Assembly: GCA_949959185.1 (NCBI GenBank)
Contig: CATLIX010000040.1
Location: 1-32,609 of the forward strand
Direction of reading: 5' to 3'
DNA length: 32,609 bases
Source of the DNA: an uncultured Eubacterium sp.
Lineage (GTDB): Bacteria; Bacillota; Clostridia; Lachnospirales; Lachnospiraceae
The stretch's first letter is position 1; each line of letters opens with the position of its first letter. A program made the translations under genes and the position numbers. A model generated the notes under the pieces. That model saw nothing but the letters and a program-made list of their open reading frames with translations. It made no database searches and was not told where the DNA came from. Of the stretch, positions 24,159-32,602 are shown in pieces.

Positions 24159-24829
<671 letters not shown>

Positions 24830-25155: not shown

Positions 25156-25183
25156 TAGACGAAATCTGAAAAAATGATATAAT
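25156..25183 (+). promoter_or_regulatory. Sigma-A-type promoter of the DUF4365 operon
   Basis: TAGACG (25156-25161), a 16-base spacer and a perfect TATAAT (25178-25183). The predicted start of transcription is around 25190, only about 18 bases before the start codon, so the leader is very short. Confidence 0.55.
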
Positions 25184-25207
25184 AAACATTATATGAGGAG
25201 GTGCGCT

Positions 25208-25717
25208 ATGCAGATAACACAAATAAAAGAAGACATTAGTATAAGTTATATTTCTGCTCTATGTGCATATGCTGGCATAGCGTATGAAATTGTGAGGCAT
25301 GATGCGGATAGTACAGATGGCATTTTGAAAAAGCGGATTTTATTAGGCGGGAATAAAAAATTTAACGCTGAACTCCGAATCCAGTTGAAATGTACATCTT
25401 CACCATCCCAATATACTGACCATGGTGATACGCTTACATATAAACTCAAGGTAAAAAATTATAATGATTTATGTCTTCCATCAACCACACCAATTATATT
25501 GGGGTTGCTTATATTGCCTGAAAACGAGGAATTGTGGGTTAATTGGACAGAAGAGGAATTGTTGATTAAGGGATGCATGTATTGGGCAGAATTTTCAAAA
25601 GAAACCGAATCATCCAATGAAGGAACTGTAAGTGTAAAAATCAATAAGAAAAATGTCATTAATGTGGAAAGCCTACGGAACATATTGGAAATGATTGCAA
25701 AGGAGGAGTGGCCATGA
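25208..25717 (+). CDS. DUF4365 domain protein, predicted PD-(D/E)XK-like nuclease
   Basis: The 169-residue protein resembles DUF4365: a helical start (QIKEDISISYISALCAYAGI), then STDGIL (D37) and LRIQLKCT (Q59, K61), the D...QxK spacing of PD-(D/E)XK nuclease folds, followed by LTYKLKVKNYNDL, PIILGLLILPENEELWVNW and a C-terminal helix. The nuclease fold is inferred from these motifs. DUF4365 genes are found in restriction and other defence neighbourhoods, but no activity is established for this one. GAGGAGGTG before ATG 25208 rules out the in-frame ATG 25193. The stop overlaps the next gene by ATGA, so the two proteins are likely made in fixed ratio. AT-rich relative to the core genes. Confidence 0.75.
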   Translation: MQITQIKEDISISYISALCAYAGIAYEIVRHDADSTDGILKKRILLGGNKKFNAELRIQLKCTSSPSQYTDHGDTLTYKLKVKNYNDLCLPSTTPIILGLLILPENEELWVNWTEEELLIKGCMYWAEFSKETESSNEGTVSVKINKKNVINVESLRNILEMIAKEEWP

Positions 25718-26862
25718 TATATTCTGTTAATTTTATGGATTTGACCGAAAAAATCAGCCCACTTGCATTTGCGAAATATTTGAAAGATATGGGCTGGGAG
25801 CAGTATCAAAGCAAGAGACAATATATAAAAATTTTTCAGTATGAAAAAAATGATGATTTTTTCCAGGTTATTATTCCTACAGAAAAAAAACTTAATGACT
25901 ATAAAGAAGCAATGTATAAGGCAGTTGTGACAGTAGCAGAAGCTGAAAATAAATCTGTTGAGCAAGTTCTGCTGTATCTACTGAATCCGAATACAGATAT
26001 TTTAAAAATACGTTTAGAAAAAAAGGACGTTGAGGCAGGAAACATTCTTTTTGATGACGCGATTCGTATGTATGAAAATGCAAAGAGATTATTAGCGGCA
26101 ACGGCATTGGATATTTTACATCCTAAGAAATATCATCAAGGGAGAATGGATGATTGTGTATTAAAATTTCTATCAAGCTGTAGATTTGGACAGACAGAAA
26201 TAGGAAGCTATGTCGTATCAGTTGTATGCCCATTTGCAGAACTCGATGAAAATGAAGATTATAAACAATTGAGCATTTTTTCAGATGAAGAGCAGTGTGC
26301 AAATTCATTGACGCGGCAAGTGACGAGCCGCGTTATGAAAAATATTTCTTTTATAAAAAATCAGATTGATAATGGAGAGATGGATAAGCTTATATTACAA
26401 GATGAAGATAAAATTATAAGTGCAAATTTTTATGAGGCATTAGGGGGGCTTAATCTTGATTCAAATGGAGCAGATGTGGAATTCATTGCTGAATGGTCTC
26501 CAATTGTAAAAAACGCTGATTGTGTCAAAAGCAGGATATTACTTACACATGATTATTATCAGCCAATTGAAACAACAATTGAAAGATTGAAAGACGAAAC
26601 GAATAAGTCTACAAGAATTATTGGCAGAATTAAGAAATTGGAATCTTCTCCGGACGTTCAGAAACGGAAGATTGGAAAGATTACGGTTGTTTATTTGGAT
26701 GAGAATGATAAACGAAAAACTGTCACTGTTAATTTGAACAAAAACGAATATGATAAGGCTATTAAAGCGCACGAAAGAGGATTCCATGTGGAAATAGTAG
26801 GAGAAATTTCGTGTGGAAGAAACGATTCTATGACCTGCGAGTCGTTTGCGGTAATTGAATAA
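25714..26862 (+). CDS. Unrecognised 382-residue protein, partner of the DUF4365 gene
   Basis: I do not recognise a named family. There is no signal peptide or membrane helix. An N-terminal part (1-150) ends in a helix; a central region contains LKFLSSCRFGQTEIGSYVVS, followed by a Glu/Asp-rich stretch and a long helical segment (RQVTSRVMKNISFIKNQI). The last 80 residues (IIGRIKKLESSP ... ITVVYLDENDKRKTVTVNL ... KAIKAHERGFHVEIVGEI) alternate short beta strands like an OB-type barrel, which is inference. It could bind nucleic acid and direct or restrain the nuclease. Start ATG 25714 is fixed by AGGAGG (25701-25706); GTG 25708 is too close. Strongly AT-rich: a hand count of 26341-26400 gives 13 G+C in 60. 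It ends 78 bases before the convergent hsdM-S gene. Confidence 0.7.
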   Translation: MIYSVNFMDLTEKISPLAFAKYLKDMGWEQYQSKRQYIKIFQYEKNDDFFQVIIPTEKKLNDYKEAMYKAVVTVAEAENKSVEQVLLYLLNPNTDILKIRLEKKDVEAGNILFDDAIRMYENAKRLLAATALDILHPKKYHQGRMDDCVLKFLSSCRFGQTEIGSYVVSVVCPFAELDENEDYKQLSIFSDEEQCANSLTRQVTSRVMKNISFIKNQIDNGEMDKLILQDEDKIISANFYEALGGLNLDSNGADVEFIAEWSPIVKNADCVKSRILLTHDYYQPIETTIERLKDETNKSTRIIGRIKKLESSPDVQKRKIGKITVVYLDENDKRKTVTVNLNKNEYDKAIKAHERGFHVEIVGEISCGRNDSMTCESFAVIE

Positions 26863-26890: not shown

Positions 26891-26933
26891 ATAATGCTAA
26901 GATAGGAGTTCGTTGCTCTTTTCTTAGCATTAT
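26891..26933. terminator. Shared terminator between convergent defence genes
   Basis: ATAATGCTAAGA (26891-26902) and TCTTAGCATTAT (26922-26933) form a perfect 12-bp stem between two converging genes. On the minus strand it is followed by GATTTTTATTTT, good for ending hsdM-S; on the plus strand the T-rich sequence is inside the loop. Confidence 0.65.
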
Positions 26934-26940
26934 AGCTATG

Positions 26941-29205
26941 TTAAACTGTTTTTTCGCACAATGGCATGAGTTTTTCTAGCCGTTGTACAATTCGCTGTTG
27001 TTCTTCAATTGGTGGTAATGGAAAAATCGAATTTGCAACTTTATCACTATTGAGATTTTTTACTACCTCACCTGAAACTTTGCCAGAAAATTGGTTATAC
27101 GCAAAATAAGAAGAAAGTAACCAATAAAGATAATCTTGGTCAAACACAGGAAAGGGTTGGCTAATTACGAGCCAACCATCATGGATGCAGCCGTCTATTT
27201 TGAGAATATATGGTCGTCCATAACTCATTGAATTTGTCAATAAAAAATCGCCAGCATGAACAAACCTGCTTTTAGCGACACCTTCAGGTCTTATCTTTTC
27301 AGCAGTAGAATAGATGTATTTTCCGTTTTTTTCTGTGTCTCCTATCTTAATCCAATTAATGCCATCTTCCGAAGTGGTAATAAAATTTGTAATAGGTCGA
27401 GGTGAACCTCCTCTGGCAATAATGCAAATAGTTCCTAAACGTACCCATTCCCATGTCTCTGGGATTTCAAAAGGAATATCAGATTCGTCAATTTCCTGAA
27501 TGACTTTTTTCTTTACTCTTTGACCGTCTAATGTCTCGGCTAAAGACTTCTTCGCTTTCATTATAAGTTGATACGGTAAAGTATCTGTTTCTAGTCTTTC
27601 AGATAGATTGCCTTGAATGGCTGATTGCAATATTGCATTGCGCATGGTTGCTGGAAATTCTTGCGTTAAGCTTCCTAATTCAGTTGTAATAGCACTAATA
27701 TTTTGCAGCTTTATTGAATAATCGCCTTCAAGATACTTTTTTAATGATAAAGTAGCCATGTCTAGTTTCTTTTCTAATTGTTCACGTTTGCTAATATAAA
27801 AAGAAAGAGCATCTTCTGGAGTTTGAATGATTTTTTCTTCCATTGGGAATCCACAGAAATCAAGATTGTAATTGCTTGACTTAATTTCTTCAATAGTTAC
27901 ACAACGAGACTTCCAGGATTCTATAACGGAATCTTCGTGGCGTTCGTCTCGGATTTCTATTCTATTATCCCACCATTCGTCTATAGAAACAAGTTTTTCG
28001 CGTGTTATAGGATTTTTTTTCATGCTAAAATTACAATCTCTTGGCAGATCAAAGCGATAAAACCATGTTTCAGTGGTACTACCCGTCTTATCAAAAAAGA
28101 GTAAATTTGTTGCGATGCTGGTATATGGTGCAAAACAACTTCCTGGTAAACGGATGATAGTATGGACTTTACATTCTTTAAAGAGTTTTTCTTTTAGCTT
28201 TATTAAACGAGCATCTTCATTTTGAAGAAAACCATCAGGCAAAATTACGCCACAACGTCCATTCGGATTAAGACGATATAATATTTCGATTATAAATAGG
28301 TTTGCGGTTTCGGAATTTCTGATTTGTGATGGGAAGTTCACTTGTATAGCATCTTGCTCATGGCCACCGTATGGAGGGTTCATAAGAACAAAATCAACTT
28401 TTTCATTGTCTTTGTAATCCCGCACATTTTTCATGAGGGAATTCTCATGATAGACACGTGGGTAATCCACATCATGGAGCAGCATGTTGGTGGTGCAGAG
28501 CATATAGGGGAACTGCTTTTTTTCCACGCCGAACACGGTCTTCTCAATAATGGCATTGTCCTCGGCTTTCTTCCGCTGTTTCCGCAGATGTTCTACAGCG
28601 TCAATGAGGAAGCCCCCTGTGCCGCACGCAAAATCAGCCGTGACTTTGCCAAGCTGTGGATTCACTTTTTCTGTGATTAGCTGCGTCAAGGCGCGCGGCG
28701 TGTAGAATTCGCCGGAACGTCCTGCGCTCTGCAGGCTTTTCAGCAGGGTTTCATATATCACATTGAAGGAATGGTGTTCTTCCCGGTCATCGAAGTCAAT
28801 GCCGTCCAGCAGGTTGACGGCTTTGCGGATGCACACACCGTCCTTCATGTAATTGTAGGATTCCGCCATCATTTCCTTCACGATTATCCTACGCCTGGAA
28901 CTTTGCGCGGTTATGGACAGATTCTTTAATTCCGGGAACAGGGTATTGTTCACGAAATTTACCATATCGTCCCCGGTCATCTGGTCTTTCTGGGATTTTC
29001 CCTTTGCCCAGTTCCGCCAGCGGCATTTTTCCGGGATGGCGCTTTGGAATCCGTCCTCATACAGCTCCCACATATCCTCTTTTAAGTCATATACTTTCAG
29101 GAACAGCATCCACACGAGCTGCGACAGCACCTGGACGGTCCCGTTCACGCCGTCGTCGTCACGCATGATGTTCTCCCATGATTTTATCAGGTTTCCGATT
29201 GCCAT
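26941..29205 (-). CDS. Type I restriction-modification HsdM fused to a half-size HsdS
   Basis: The 754-residue protein carries two activities in one chain. Residues 1-480 are an N6-adenine methyltransferase: HsdM N-terminal helices, GEFYTPRALTQLI, SAM motif DFACGTGGF (191-199) and catalytic NPPY (276-279). Residues from about 516 are HsdS-like: a helical spacer (FPATMRNAILQSAIQG) then one target-recognition domain (PETWEWVRLGTI, about 581 to 740) and a short conserved helix PPIEEQQRIVQRLEKL. Usual HsdS subunits have two such domains. A one-domain fusion should dimerise to recognise a palindromic bipartite site. GGAGGG before ATG 29205 lies 12 bases after the hsdR stop. Residues after about 255 are encoded by clearly more AT-rich DNA. 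Confidence 0.9.
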   Translation of the reverse strand: MAIGNLIKSWENIMRDDDGVNGTVQVLSQLVWMLFLKVYDLKEDMWELYEDGFQSAIPEKCRWRNWAKGKSQKDQMTGDDMVNFVNNTLFPELKNLSITAQSSRRRIIVKEMMAESYNYMKDGVCIRKAVNLLDGIDFDDREEHHSFNVIYETLLKSLQSAGRSGEFYTPRALTQLITEKVNPQLGKVTADFACGTGGFLIDAVEHLRKQRKKAEDNAIIEKTVFGVEKKQFPYMLCTTNMLLHDVDYPRVYHENSLMKNVRDYKDNEKVDFVLMNPPYGGHEQDAIQVNFPSQIRNSETANLFIIEILYRLNPNGRCGVILPDGFLQNEDARLIKLKEKLFKECKVHTIIRLPGSCFAPYTSIATNLLFFDKTGSTTETWFYRFDLPRDCNFSMKKNPITREKLVSIDEWWDNRIEIRDERHEDSVIESWKSRCVTIEEIKSSNYNLDFCGFPMEEKIIQTPEDALSFYISKREQLEKKLDMATLSLKKYLEGDYSIKLQNISAITTELGSLTQEFPATMRNAILQSAIQGNLSERLETDTLPYQLIMKAKKSLAETLDGQRVKKKVIQEIDESDIPFEIPETWEWVRLGTICIIARGGSPRPITNFITTSEDGINWIKIGDTEKNGKYIYSTAEKIRPEGVAKSRFVHAGDFLLTNSMSYGRPYILKIDGCIHDGWLVISQPFPVFDQDYLYWLLSSYFAYNQFSGKVSGEVVKNLNSDKVANSIFPLPPIEEQQRIVQRLEKLMPLCEKTV

Positions 29206-29217
29206 ATGTCCCTCCGT

Positions 29218-30692
29218 TTACGCTACATATATCTGCTTTTCGATTTCCGAGAGCATTTCCATATATTTCTCTTTCCCGCCGAAGCCCTTTACAATGGCAG
29301 TCGGCGCGTTGATCTGTATAAATTCCGGCATGTTCAGGATGCGCATATTGGTAAGCTCGTCAATGTTCCGGTCACGGTACGCATCCAGCAGCAGGCGTAT
29401 GACGCCCTGGTTTTCCTTACTGAATTTATCGAGGTAGCCGGACACCAGTATGCGGTCGATGCGTTCCTCCTTAGTCAGCGGCTGTTTTTCATAGCCGATA
29501 TAAGAGAGGACGTCGTAATCATCCACATGGCTTTCCGGGATCGTTTCACGCACGAAATCAATGAACACGCCGTCCGCGACAAGCTGGTCCAGCAGTTCCT
29601 GCTTCTTTTTCTGCGCGAGCCATATTTTCCTGAACTCTTCATAATATGGGTACAGCCTGCGCAGGTTGCTGCGGGAATAGTCGATGATGGATTCGGTGAT
29701 CAGGTTCCCGTTGGCGTCCAGGTATTCCACCTTTTCGTTTATGATGCTGACAGGGATGCCGTTGATCACATATTTTTCCCGGCCAGTAGGTTTTTGTCCG
29801 CCGGGCCGGTCTCCACTGTGGCCGTCTGTATCATCGGAAAAGCCGCCGCCACTACCCATAGCATCATCTGGAATGTCGGCCTCCAGACTGCCGTCTGTGA
29901 AACTGTCATCTTCACCAACGTCTTTTATCTGTGTAGGGTCGCCGTCAAAAGCCGGGTCTGCAAATTTCACATAATTCCTGCGGAAGTCCATGATAGTGAA
30001 ATACAGTTTGCTGCAGTCCTCGCGGACGCGGGTGCCGCGCCCTATGATCTGCTTGAATTCCGTCATGGAGCCGACCGTGCGGTCGAGGACCACGAGCTGG
30101 CAGGTCTGGGAATTTACGCCCGTGCTCATCAGCCTGCTCGTGACGGCGACCACAGGGTACGGCTCATGGGGGTCTGTAAAATCCTCCAGCAGCGGCTTTT
30201 CATCCGAACCGGCGGTGATCTGTGCAATGTAATGAGGCTGTTCCCTGACCAGGTCTTTATTTTCATTTACCAGGGCATTGCGCATGCGTTCAGCGTGATC
30301 GATGTCCTCACAGAACACAATGGTTTTAGAAAAGCGTCCGGTTTCTTTCAAAAAGTCGGAGATGCGCCTGGCAACGGCAAGGGTACGTTCCTCCACGACC
30401 AATGTACGGTCAAAATCCTTCTGTTCATATATCCTGTCCTCAAGGGGCTTTCCGTGGATATCCAGTGCGCCCGGTGCGGGACGGTATCCGTTCACGTCTA
30501 TGTCCAGATTGACGCGGATGACCTTGTATGGGGCAAGGAAGCCGTCGTCAATGCCCTGTTTTAAGCTGTATGTATAAACCGGATCCCCGAAATATTCGAT
30601 ATTGGATGTATCCTTTGTTTCCTTTGGCGTGGCCGTCATGCCGATTTGTATGGCCGAGCTGAAATACTCTAGGATTTCATGCATTGAAATCC
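29218..30692 (-). pseudogene. hsdR remnant, C-terminal part of type I restriction endonuclease
   Basis: The open frame carries helicase motif III (IGMTATPKETKD), then YFGDPVYTYSLKQGI, IVFCEDIDHAERM (IV), SRLMSTGVNS (V) and EFKQIIGRGTRVRED (VI), plus the C-terminal domain that contacts HsdM. The N-terminal nuclease domain, Walker A and the DEAH box are missing: recognisable homology begins at HEILEYFSSA, exactly at the 21-bp palindrome 30672-30692. Upstream sequence codes for nothing HsdR-like. About half of an HsdR of roughly 1000 residues remains, so restriction should be lost while the hsdM-S gene downstream stays intact. A low-grade start (ATG at 30684) could still allow translation of the fragment, which would leave a tracking domain without a cutting domain. 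Confidence 0.85.
30672..30692. repeat. Palindrome at the hsdR truncation point
   Basis: GGATTTCA (30672-30679) and TGAAATCC (30685-30692) are exact reverse complements around TGCAT. The break in HsdR homology coincides with this site, suggesting a recombination or inversion joint. Confidence 0.6.
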
Positions 30693-30722
30693 GGTTTAAA
30701 CACAGAAAGAGCAAGAAAAGCG

Positions 30723-31951: not shown

Positions 31952-32602
31952 CTATTCTGCCTTTATCTGCAAAGTCTTGACGGCCTCCGGGCGGGTGAGC
32001 CTGCCGTCCAGGAACTCATAGGCAAGGTAGCCTGTCTGGTGCTGGAGGGTGAAACGCTCCGTCAGCGTCCGCACGGACAGCGGGAGGCGGTTCACGATCC
32101 AGTAATGGCTGAAATCCCCGAATGCAACGGGCAGTCTCCCAGGGGCGGCGGACGGCATGAATTCTGAGGTATGCACGGGTTTTCCAAAGATAGTGTCGCT
32201 GTTATGGTTCCACAGGTAGCTTCCGCCCGCATCCTTTAACGTGCGGAGCGCGAGGGCAGTCTCGTCATTCATGATCCACACGCCGTTTTTGCGGTATTCC
32301 GGCTTGACGGAGAGGTACAGCTTTGCCATATCGTCAAAGCTGATCTCTGTGGCTGTAAGGCCAACCTCCGCGCCGTCTGTGCCATGCAGGATGCCTGTCG
32401 GCATTCCTTCGCCGCTCCCATTGATAAATGCGTTTTCCTCTGCCCTGCCGAAACTTTTTGCCAGGTGTGCGGTGAGGTAGCTTTCCGCGTCAAAGCCAAT
32501 ATCCTTTACATAGTTGTTGGTGAGCTTTGCGATGATTTTGTCAAGATTAGTTGACACATTTTCCTCAGGGATTTTGTATCCTATGCTGCTTCTTTCAGGG
32601 AA
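31952..32602 (-). pseudogene. HK97-type phage major capsid protein, 5'-truncated
   Basis: The open frame of about 201-216 residues covers the C-terminal half of an HK97-fold major capsid protein: GFDAESYLTAHLAKSFGRAE, ENAFINGSGEGMPTGILHG, VWIMNDETALALRTLKDAGG, SYLWNHNSDTIFGKPVHTS and the C-terminal FGDFSHYWIVNRLPLSVRTL with LAYEFLDGRLTRPEAVKTLQ. Full proteins are about 390-400 residues; the delta/scaffold region and N-arm are missing. In frame, a TGA at 32603-32605 closes the upstream side; no ribosome binding site suits the GTG at 32557. A different frame ends YDSLKEAA at 32581, perhaps the tail of another minus-strand gene. No other head or tail genes are visible in the window. Confidence 0.8.
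32539..32556. repeat. TGTCAA-N6-TTGACA palindrome at the capsid fragment's 5' end
   Basis: TGTCAA (32539-32544) and TTGACA (32551-32556) are exact inverted 6-mers around six bases, at the place where capsid homology stops. It could be a recombination joint or chance. Confidence 0.4.

What the first reader, a model, noticed from the sequence alone, without database searches (positions are those of the whole stretch)
25208..26862. Two-gene DUF4365 nuclease plus unknown partner, a candidate undescribed defence module
Seen: a short operon with its own promoter (TATAAT at 25178), an ATGA overlap between the genes, its own terminator, high A+T content, and insertion between a broken resolvase and a type I restriction remnant. 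The first protein has D37...Q59-x-K61, consistent with a PD-(D/E)XK nuclease. The second (382 residues) matches no family I recognise and ends in a probable small beta-barrel domain. Known: DUF4365 genes recur near restriction systems. Inferred: the partner senses or binds nucleic acid and gates the nuclease.
Basis: partly seen in the sequence, partly recalled or inferred. Interest (0 to 1): 0.75.

Follow-up and report, generated by a model that had tools for sequence, protein, structure and literature searches.

The report
Two-gene nuclease module, catalogued defence candidate
Two overlapping bacterial genes, a DNA-cutting enzyme like the effector of a known anti-virus system and a partner protein that travels with it, form a mobile candidate defence unit that a database already lists but for which I found no published test.

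Summary
It is not undescribed: PADLOC-DB lists the pair as candidate PDC-M02 (A 7.8e-51, B 2.7e-189). No paper in the held library names it. A is a PD-(D/E)XK nuclease: D37, Q59 and K61 are invariant in 82 of 82 intact pairs, and its model's 15 best PDB matches are all SPARDA effector chains, in which the corresponding D41/Q60/K62 are needed for activity (PMC12205087). B ends in an OB fold; the rest has no confident match among solved structures. Pairing holds across eleven phyla and on phages and plasmids; exceptions are mostly damaged A genes (A damaged with B intact 11 of 74, the reverse 0 of 74). The pair sits inside BREX operons at two positions. Nostocales plasmids carry a minimal B: N-terminal domain joined directly to the OB fold, without the middle 200 residues. 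Best reading: B gates a collateral nuclease, giving abortive infection; gating and trigger are inferred. The 'broken' neighbours are intact in a sibling strain.

The parts
25156..25183 (+). promoter-like site, extended -10 TATAAT at 25178
   Evidence: number of such sites in the region not above shuffles
25196..25201 (+). AGGAGG ribosome-binding site of gene A
   Evidence: sequence
25208..25717 (+). gene A, 169 aa, DUF4365 / PDC-M02A, SPARDA-DREN-like PD-(D/E)XK nuclease
25316..25318 (+). codon of D37, predicted catalytic Asp
   Evidence: invariant 82 of 82; aligns with the Asp of solved SPARDA chains
25382..25390 (+). codons of Q59-L60-K61, predicted catalytic Q-x-K
   Evidence: Q and K invariant 82 of 82
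25714..25717 (+). ATGA stop/start overlap of A and B
   Evidence: a 4-base overlap in 59 of 83 intact pairs
25714..26862 (+). gene B, 382 aa, PDC-M02B partner
25714..25986 (+). B N-terminal domain (residues 1-91), kept in the shortened partners too
25987..26595 (+). B middle region (residues 92-294), absent from the Nostocales minimal partner
26188..26208 (+). B motif GQTEIGS (residues 159-165); T161, G164, S165 invariant
26596..26859 (+). B C-terminal OB fold (residues 295-382)
26891..26933 (.). hairpin between convergent genes, possible bidirectional terminator
   Evidence: not a consensus terminator

Best explanation
The pair is a member of the PADLOC candidate PDC-M02: a compact, mobile two-gene immunity module. 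Gene A is a non-specific nuclease of the DUF4365/DREN kind. Gene B is its partner: it holds or assembles A and releases it when it senses infection. By analogy with SPARDA, activation would bring several A subunits together and cause collateral cutting of DNA or RNA, with dormancy or death of the infected cell. B's N-terminal domain is the likeliest docking site for A, because it is the one piece present in every partner I examined by profile. The middle region with the GQTExGS motif is the likeliest sensor, because a natural variant lacks it. Shown here: operon, pairing, nuclease signature and predicted fold, modularity of B, embedding in BREX, carriage on phages and plasmids. Inferred: antiphage function, gating, collateral activity, nature of the trigger.
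For: Family: A and B hit PDC-M02A and PDC-M02B. Nuclease: D37/Q59/K61 invariant in 82 of 82 intact pairs; model pLDDT 91.4, the 15 best PDB matches are all SPARDA chains (E 4.4e-8 to 2.1e-4), then I-Ssp6803I and Hjc; the profile aligns D, Q and K with those of SPARDA chains. In NbaSPARDA D41A and Q60A abolish and K62A impairs collateral activity, and the DREN domain alone is monomeric with undetectable activity (PMC12205087, passages). Pairing: in 397 genomes of the family A occurs in 6 and B in 5, all 5 shared; the sixth A ends at a contig end. A and B identity matrices correlate at r = 0.86 over 82 loci, 0 of 2000 permutations reach it (0.45 among pairs of loci with B under 35% identical). 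Defence context: brxA-brxB-brxC-[A-B]-pglX in L059; brxC, two genes, pglX-[A-B]-pglZ-brxL in L063. Mobility: 16 viral contigs, Leptospira phage LE1 and a M. abscessus prophage, plasmids. Asymmetric decay: B-seeded, A damaged with B intact in 11 of 74, the reverse 0 of 74; A-seeded in plasmids, 26 records with A covered in one piece all have a partner, out of 28 listed with at least 84% coverage (the call counts 30 with at least 80%; 40 of 45 listed). Those records include near-copies.
Against: No experiment. No defence model recurs strongly beside the pair, and neighbours are diverse. In the L063 BREX operon A is itself split between two frames, so only the L059/L004 arrangement holds an intact pair. 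B has no confident match among solved structures outside its OB domain (50 of 904 rows seen) and none to APAZ or pAgo chains by profile. The OB domain is not basic in the family. DREN alone is inactive in SPARDA, which predicts that A without B would be harmless, yet I saw no intact A without a partner. The decay asymmetry rests partly on a search seeded on B; many loci are draft metagenome assemblies, and one of the 11 (L096) lacks only about its last 20 residues. Two other PADLOC candidates tested in a native host showed no activity (PMC12409345, passages).
Confidence: 0.55

Rival explanations
1. Toxin-antitoxin-like maintenance or competition module: A is a nuclease toxin, B its antitoxin, and the pair stabilises mobile elements; any phage defence is secondary.
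For: A is damaged while B is intact in 11 of 74 loci, never the reverse; A covered in one piece has a partner in 26 of 26 plasmid records; the pair occurs on plasmids and phages; in four of eight Nostocales plasmid loci examined (L146, L147, L152, L153) it lies just behind a ParA-like or AAA ATPase and a small gene.
Against: B is large and multi-domain for an antitoxin (judged from general knowledge), with an invariant motif in its middle; the pair is embedded in BREX operons.
Confidence: 0.22
2. Restriction-like system: B recognises foreign or modified DNA and directs A to cut it, sparing the host without a methylase.
For: Mrr/RecB-like nuclease class (PMC6299218, passages); OB fold; restriction genes next door in the window and in L053; weak structural matches of A to EcoRV, MspJI and AspBHI.
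Against: No methylase recurs beside the pair: at most 4 of 142 neighbours match any one methylase model. The closest structures are collateral effectors. B's OB domain is not basic in the family.
Confidence: 0.13
3. Housekeeping or repair role unrelated to defence.
For: The Pfam families shown for immediate neighbours are largely metabolic, transport and regulatory (25 of 124 families shown); OB domains and PD-(D/E)XK folds are common in repair (general knowledge).
Against: Sporadic (5 of 397 genomes of the family), apparently transferred between phyla (three Pseudomonadota rows among Bacillota rows, 100/99), on phages and plasmids, inside BREX operons.
Confidence: 0.07

Closest known systems
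PADLOC candidate system PDC-M02 (PDC-M02A + PDC-M02B)
   Same: both genes and full length (A 7.8e-51, B 2.7e-189)
   Different: nothing defining; this is a member. The rows I saw give no description or mechanism, and no paper in the held library names it.
SPARDA: short prokaryotic Argonaute with DREN(DUF4365)-APAZ
   Same: nuclease fold and the D/Q/K catalytic set; effector with a separate partner gene
   Different: no APAZ domain on A (169 aa), no Argonaute gene beside it; B does not match SPARDA chains by profile or among the 50 Foldseek rows shown; hence no guide RNA is expected
I-Ssp6803I homing endonuclease and Hjc resolvase
   Same: PD-(D/E)XK core (recalled), weaker structural match (E 1.8e-3 to 6e-3)
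   Different: different biology; no OB partner (recalled)
Single-stranded-DNA-binding OB folds (SSB, PriB, RPA)
   Same: C-terminal barrel of B only (best E 2.6e-3)
   Different: B's OB is one of three parts and is not basic in the family

Membership tests
PDC-M02 (PADLOC) | PDC-M02A protein | tested here: met
   PDLC04297 E 7.8e-51, residues 1-168
PDC-M02 (PADLOC) | adjacent PDC-M02B protein | tested here: met
   PDLC04321 E 2.7e-189, residues 1-382, 4-base overlap with A
PDC-M02 (PADLOC) | antiphage activity | not testable with these tools
   no published test found in the held library
DUF4365 / PD-(D/E)XK nuclease | family profile above its cut-off | tested here: met
   66.3 bits against a cut-off of 24.3
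DUF4365 / PD-(D/E)XK nuclease | D...QxK catalytic residues | tested here: met
   82 of 82; aligned with SPARDA
DUF4365 / PD-(D/E)XK nuclease | fold | tested here: met
   predicted model pLDDT 91.4, 15 best PDB matches SPARDA
SPARDA | APAZ domain fused to the nuclease | tested here: not met
   A is 169 aa; its only Pfam match above cut-off is DUF4365
SPARDA | short Argonaute partner | tested here: not met
   no Argonaute family for B or among the 25 of 36 weak families shown; no pAgo or APAZ chain by profile
SPARDA | activation by nuclease tetramerisation | not testable with these tools
   no complex prediction available
Toxin-antitoxin module | partner neutralises the nuclease | tested here: inconclusive
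   asymmetric decay is compatible with it

The most novel reading that the evidence does not exclude
PDC-M02 is a guide-free sister of SPARDA: the same DREN-type collateral nuclease is run by a modular adaptor (constant docking domain, removable middle sensor, OB fold) instead of an Argonaute. Nostocales plasmids would carry a sensor-less minimal form. This would make the DREN nuclease a shared effector plugged into unrelated sensors, like TIR or SIR2.
Probability: 0.3. Interest if true: 0.75.

Novelty: new member of a known kind. Interest (0 to 1): 0.5.

Why it matters
A widespread catalogued candidate gets a concrete and testable biochemistry: an effector whose catalytic residues are known from a relative, and a partner whose natural variants already separate a constant part from a removable one. 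If right, DREN nucleases are a general effector module, and PDC-M02 offers a two-protein, guide-free collateral nuclease whose trigger could be found by phage escape mutants.

Tried and rejected
Rejected: 'undescribed module'. Rejected: B as an Argonaute/APAZ relative (absence of a match is weak evidence). Rejected: a constant third gene; clustering of 1,254 flanking ORFs (up to 8 a side) gave no family at more than 12 loci, and the largest, at varied positions, looks like ABC transporters (my reading of the one sequence shown). Rejected: restriction neighbours as part of the system; adjacency to type I restriction is not constant. The cut-short hsdR and resolvase are not evidence of an old degraded island.

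Led nowhere: single-protein search of viral contigs (0 relatives); nucleotide search of plasmids (none); tblastn of window B against phages (none; the Entomospira B then found four records); PDB sequence searches with single proteins; weak DUF2812 match of B's N-terminus (0.015, below cut-off), not pursued. A far-flank control set for defence genes was prepared but not run, so enrichment of defence neighbours is not quantified. The decay test is suggestive only. L078, counted as damaged by the script, has an intact 164-aa A ORF and was moved to intact; L075 has a stop in A but its B runs off the contig and was set aside. The Fisher value (p 0.03) used 0 of 28; in two of those 28 records A lies in two pieces, so the proper figure is 0 of 26, and the records are not independent.

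Full report
WHAT IS THERE. The window is a whole 32.6-kb contig. The family is Lachnospiraceae by inference: two same-family genomes have contigs of the same length and match as named Lachnospiraceae-type records. It carries two genes on the + strand: A at 25208-25717 (169 aa) and B at 25714-26862 (382 aa), overlapping by ATGA, each with a good ribosome site. They are 34-36% G+C against 46.8% for window 1-24155. Upstream lies a serine recombinase (24228-24746), downstream and convergent an HsdM-HsdS fusion (26941-29205) and an HsdR fragment (29218-30714). In a second genome of the same species the same stretch is 99.6% identical, the recombinase ORF is 200 aa and HsdR 809 aa; the window lacks about 1.2 kb of hsdR with 8 shared bases at the junction. 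In that genome serA and a peptidase-like gene (M16 type, recalled) lie about 15 kb apart, with the module between them; in another species of the genus (G812) the same two genes are 2.8 kb apart with other genes between. The site is therefore variable. The promoter is plausible but not statistically special, and there is no consensus terminator, only a hairpin between convergent genes.

WHAT IT IS. Pfam gives only DUF4365 above cut-off for A and nothing for B; NCBIfam (June 2026) has nothing near a cut-off for either. PADLOC-DB names them PDC-M02A and PDC-M02B. PDCs are putative, not experimentally validated systems found by 'guilt-by-embedding' (PMC10855318 and PMC12988326, passages). No paper in the held library contains 'PDC-M02'. 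Ten papers contain DUF4365 (listing); I read passages of three (PMC6299218, PMC10810196, PMC12205087), all on Argonaute-linked proteins. Preprints and most subscription papers are not held, so a published test may exist unseen.

GENE A. With 69 rows the model reaches pLDDT 91.4. Its 15 best PDB matches are all SPARDA chains, followed by I-Ssp6803I and Hjc. A profile search of PDB sequences finds the SPARDA DUF4365 chain 9qbq weakly (0.0032), with D, Q and K aligned. D37, Q59 and K61 are invariant in 76 of 76 aligned rows, 82 of 82 intact pairs, and in nine further or divergent members including phage and Nostocales ones. In NbaSPARDA D41A and Q60A abolish and K62A impairs collateral activity; DREN alone is monomeric with undetectable activity, and becomes active as a tetramer on the filament (PMC12205087, passages). 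[quoted passage not shown] So A is very probably an active nuclease, and probably needs a partner-driven switch.

GENE B. The model (80 rows, pLDDT 89.0) ends in an OB fold (residues 300-381: three strands, helix, two strands). Foldseek against the PDB gives no match at E 0.001 or better, and the 50 rows shown (of 904) are proteins with OB domains as far as I recognise them; Pfam's OB family matches 13 of 80 members at E up to 0.1 (best 0.00038). Invariant in 82 of 82: W28, D95, T161, G164, S165; the last three lie in a G-Q/H-T-E/F-x-G-S-F/Y hairpin (G159 in 78, E162 in 75 of 82). The only full-length structural match in the viral library is a protein of Leptospira phage LE1 (E 1.3e-20, TM 0.59), which itself has an A gene next to it.

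MODULARITY OF B. An A-seeded plasmid search found nuclease genes whose partner is only about 180 aa. In Nostoc (L146, L147), Tolypothrix (L152) and Calothrix (L153) the partner is profile positions 1-91 joined directly to about 295-378: N-terminal domain plus OB, without the middle region that holds D95 and GQTExGS. PADLOC models agree (L146, L147, L153). Seventeen plasmid records of Nostoc, Tolypothrix, Calothrix and Microchaete match this minimal partner over 98% or more (several are near-copies); the layout was checked by profile in seven. Thirteen of the 17 also have A covered over 88% or more in one piece; two (175- and 176-kb Tolypothrix plasmids, one fetched as L158) have A in two pieces; two have no A gene in place, L155 keeping only a remnant of its last 26 residues and L156 none. 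In Azospirillum (L148) the partner keeps only the N-terminal domain. The N-terminal domain is thus the constant companion of the nuclease (docking, inferred) and the middle the removable part (sensing, inferred).

PAIRING AND SPREAD. One motif scan of 84,980 species genomes gave 212 stretches, 201 of them relatives, of which the best 80 were kept. Of these, 74 have at least 600 bp upstream of B and a B that does not run off the locus by the script's rule: 58 both intact (57 by script plus L078), 11 with A damaged or absent and B intact, 4 both damaged, 1 undetermined (L075), 0 with intact A and damaged B. The nearest relative of the window B, L034 (84%), keeps only remnants of A. In 83 intact pairs from all sources the gap is a 4-base overlap in 59 and at most 10 bases in 82. 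Seeded the other way, 45 plasmid records match an A query, 40 are listed, 28 of these at 84% coverage or more; in two A is in two pieces; the other 26 all have a partner, one (Azospirillum) only the N-terminal part. In 397 genomes of the family: A in 6, B in 5, the same five; one of these (G281) holds only fragments of both, and the sixth A ends at a contig end. The tree of 72 B proteins spans 11 phylum-level groups by submitter's title; three Succinivibrionaceae/Aeromonadales rows lie among Bacillota rows in a fork with 100/99 support, which suggests transfer, though bins can hold stray contigs. Spirochaete members come from a plasmid and a phage, Nostocales ones from plasmids.

DEFENCE CONTEXT. 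L059 reads brxA-brxB-brxC-[A-B]-pglX; L063 reads brxC, two other genes, pglX pieces, [A-B], pglZ, brxL. In L063 A is split between two frames. L004 shares the first arrangement by sequence clustering, with an intact A. These are two insertion points in one kind of defence operon. Of 142 immediate neighbours scanned (from the 80 loci, those with a complete ORF), PADLOC matches at 1e-10 include BrxC, PglX, PglZ, type I methylase and specificity subunits, AbiD (two members) and PD-T7-5; no model matches more than 4, and the call does not say how many neighbours match anything. Pfam shows diverse families, none at more than 3. Ten large neighbours, two of them picked because already suspected, gave three defence hits. 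No control set was run, so this is qualitative: the pair is often a stand-alone cargo, sometimes inside defence operons.

MECHANISM. Shown: near-constant pairing, nuclease signature and predicted fold, modular partner. Inferred: B docks A by its N-terminal domain; a signal acts on the middle or OB part; A subunits assemble and cut nucleic acid indiscriminately; the cell stops or dies and the phage does not spread. The decay pattern (A is damaged first; no intact A seen alone) suggests that A is the costly half and that B also restrains it. A pure activator model, as in SPARDA where DREN alone is inert, does not predict that by itself.

NOVELTY. The window pair is an ordinary full-length member of an already catalogued candidate. 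Not found in print in my searches: the structural tie of this pair to SPARDA's nuclease, the invariant motif of B, the minimal partner in Nostocales, and the two BREX positions.

Noticed in passing
window 29218-30714, junction 30675-30682: hsdR is 498 aa here but 809 aa in a second genome of the species; the window lacks about 1.2 kb with 8 bp shared at the junction.
   Followed up: partly
window 24228-24746: Serine recombinase cut short at 172 aa in the window; the ORF is 200 aa in the sibling genome.
   Followed up: partly
window 26941-29205: HsdM and HsdS fused in one 754-aa protein with a single specificity-domain match.
   Followed up: no
L146, L147, L152, L153: Minimal A-B pairs on Nostocales plasmids lie just behind a ParA-like or AAA ATPase and a ~130-150-aa gene (4 of 8 such loci examined; not L154, L155, L156, L158).
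   Followed up: partly
L155 3501-4043, L156 3501-4043, L158 2975-3517: Minimal B without a working A; all three have the same 192-194-aa gene upstream on the other strand (45-91% identical), so the site may be re-used after A is lost.
   Followed up: partly
L148 4490-5047: Azospirillum partner keeps only B's N-terminal domain plus an unrelated tail with a weak Acb2/Tad1-hairpin match (0.016, below cut-off).
   Followed up: no
L063 4978-8487: A piece matching the C-terminal part of PglX lies upstream of a piece matching its N-terminal and central part, inside a BREX operon; possible rearranged or switching pglX.
   Followed up: no
L021 8548-9825: A is split by roughly 0.7-0.8 kb of inserted DNA that the related viral contig L022 lacks.
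   Followed up: no
L151 3992-4976: In the Bradyrhizobium plasmid examined A is truncated next to a transposase gene and no B was found in the 8.3 kb fetched; 15 Bradyrhizobium records matched the A query, the listed ones at 59% coverage.
   Followed up: partly
window 31952-32557: HK97-type phage capsid fragment near the contig end; capsid relatives also lie next to the pair in viral contigs L021 and L022.
   Followed up: no
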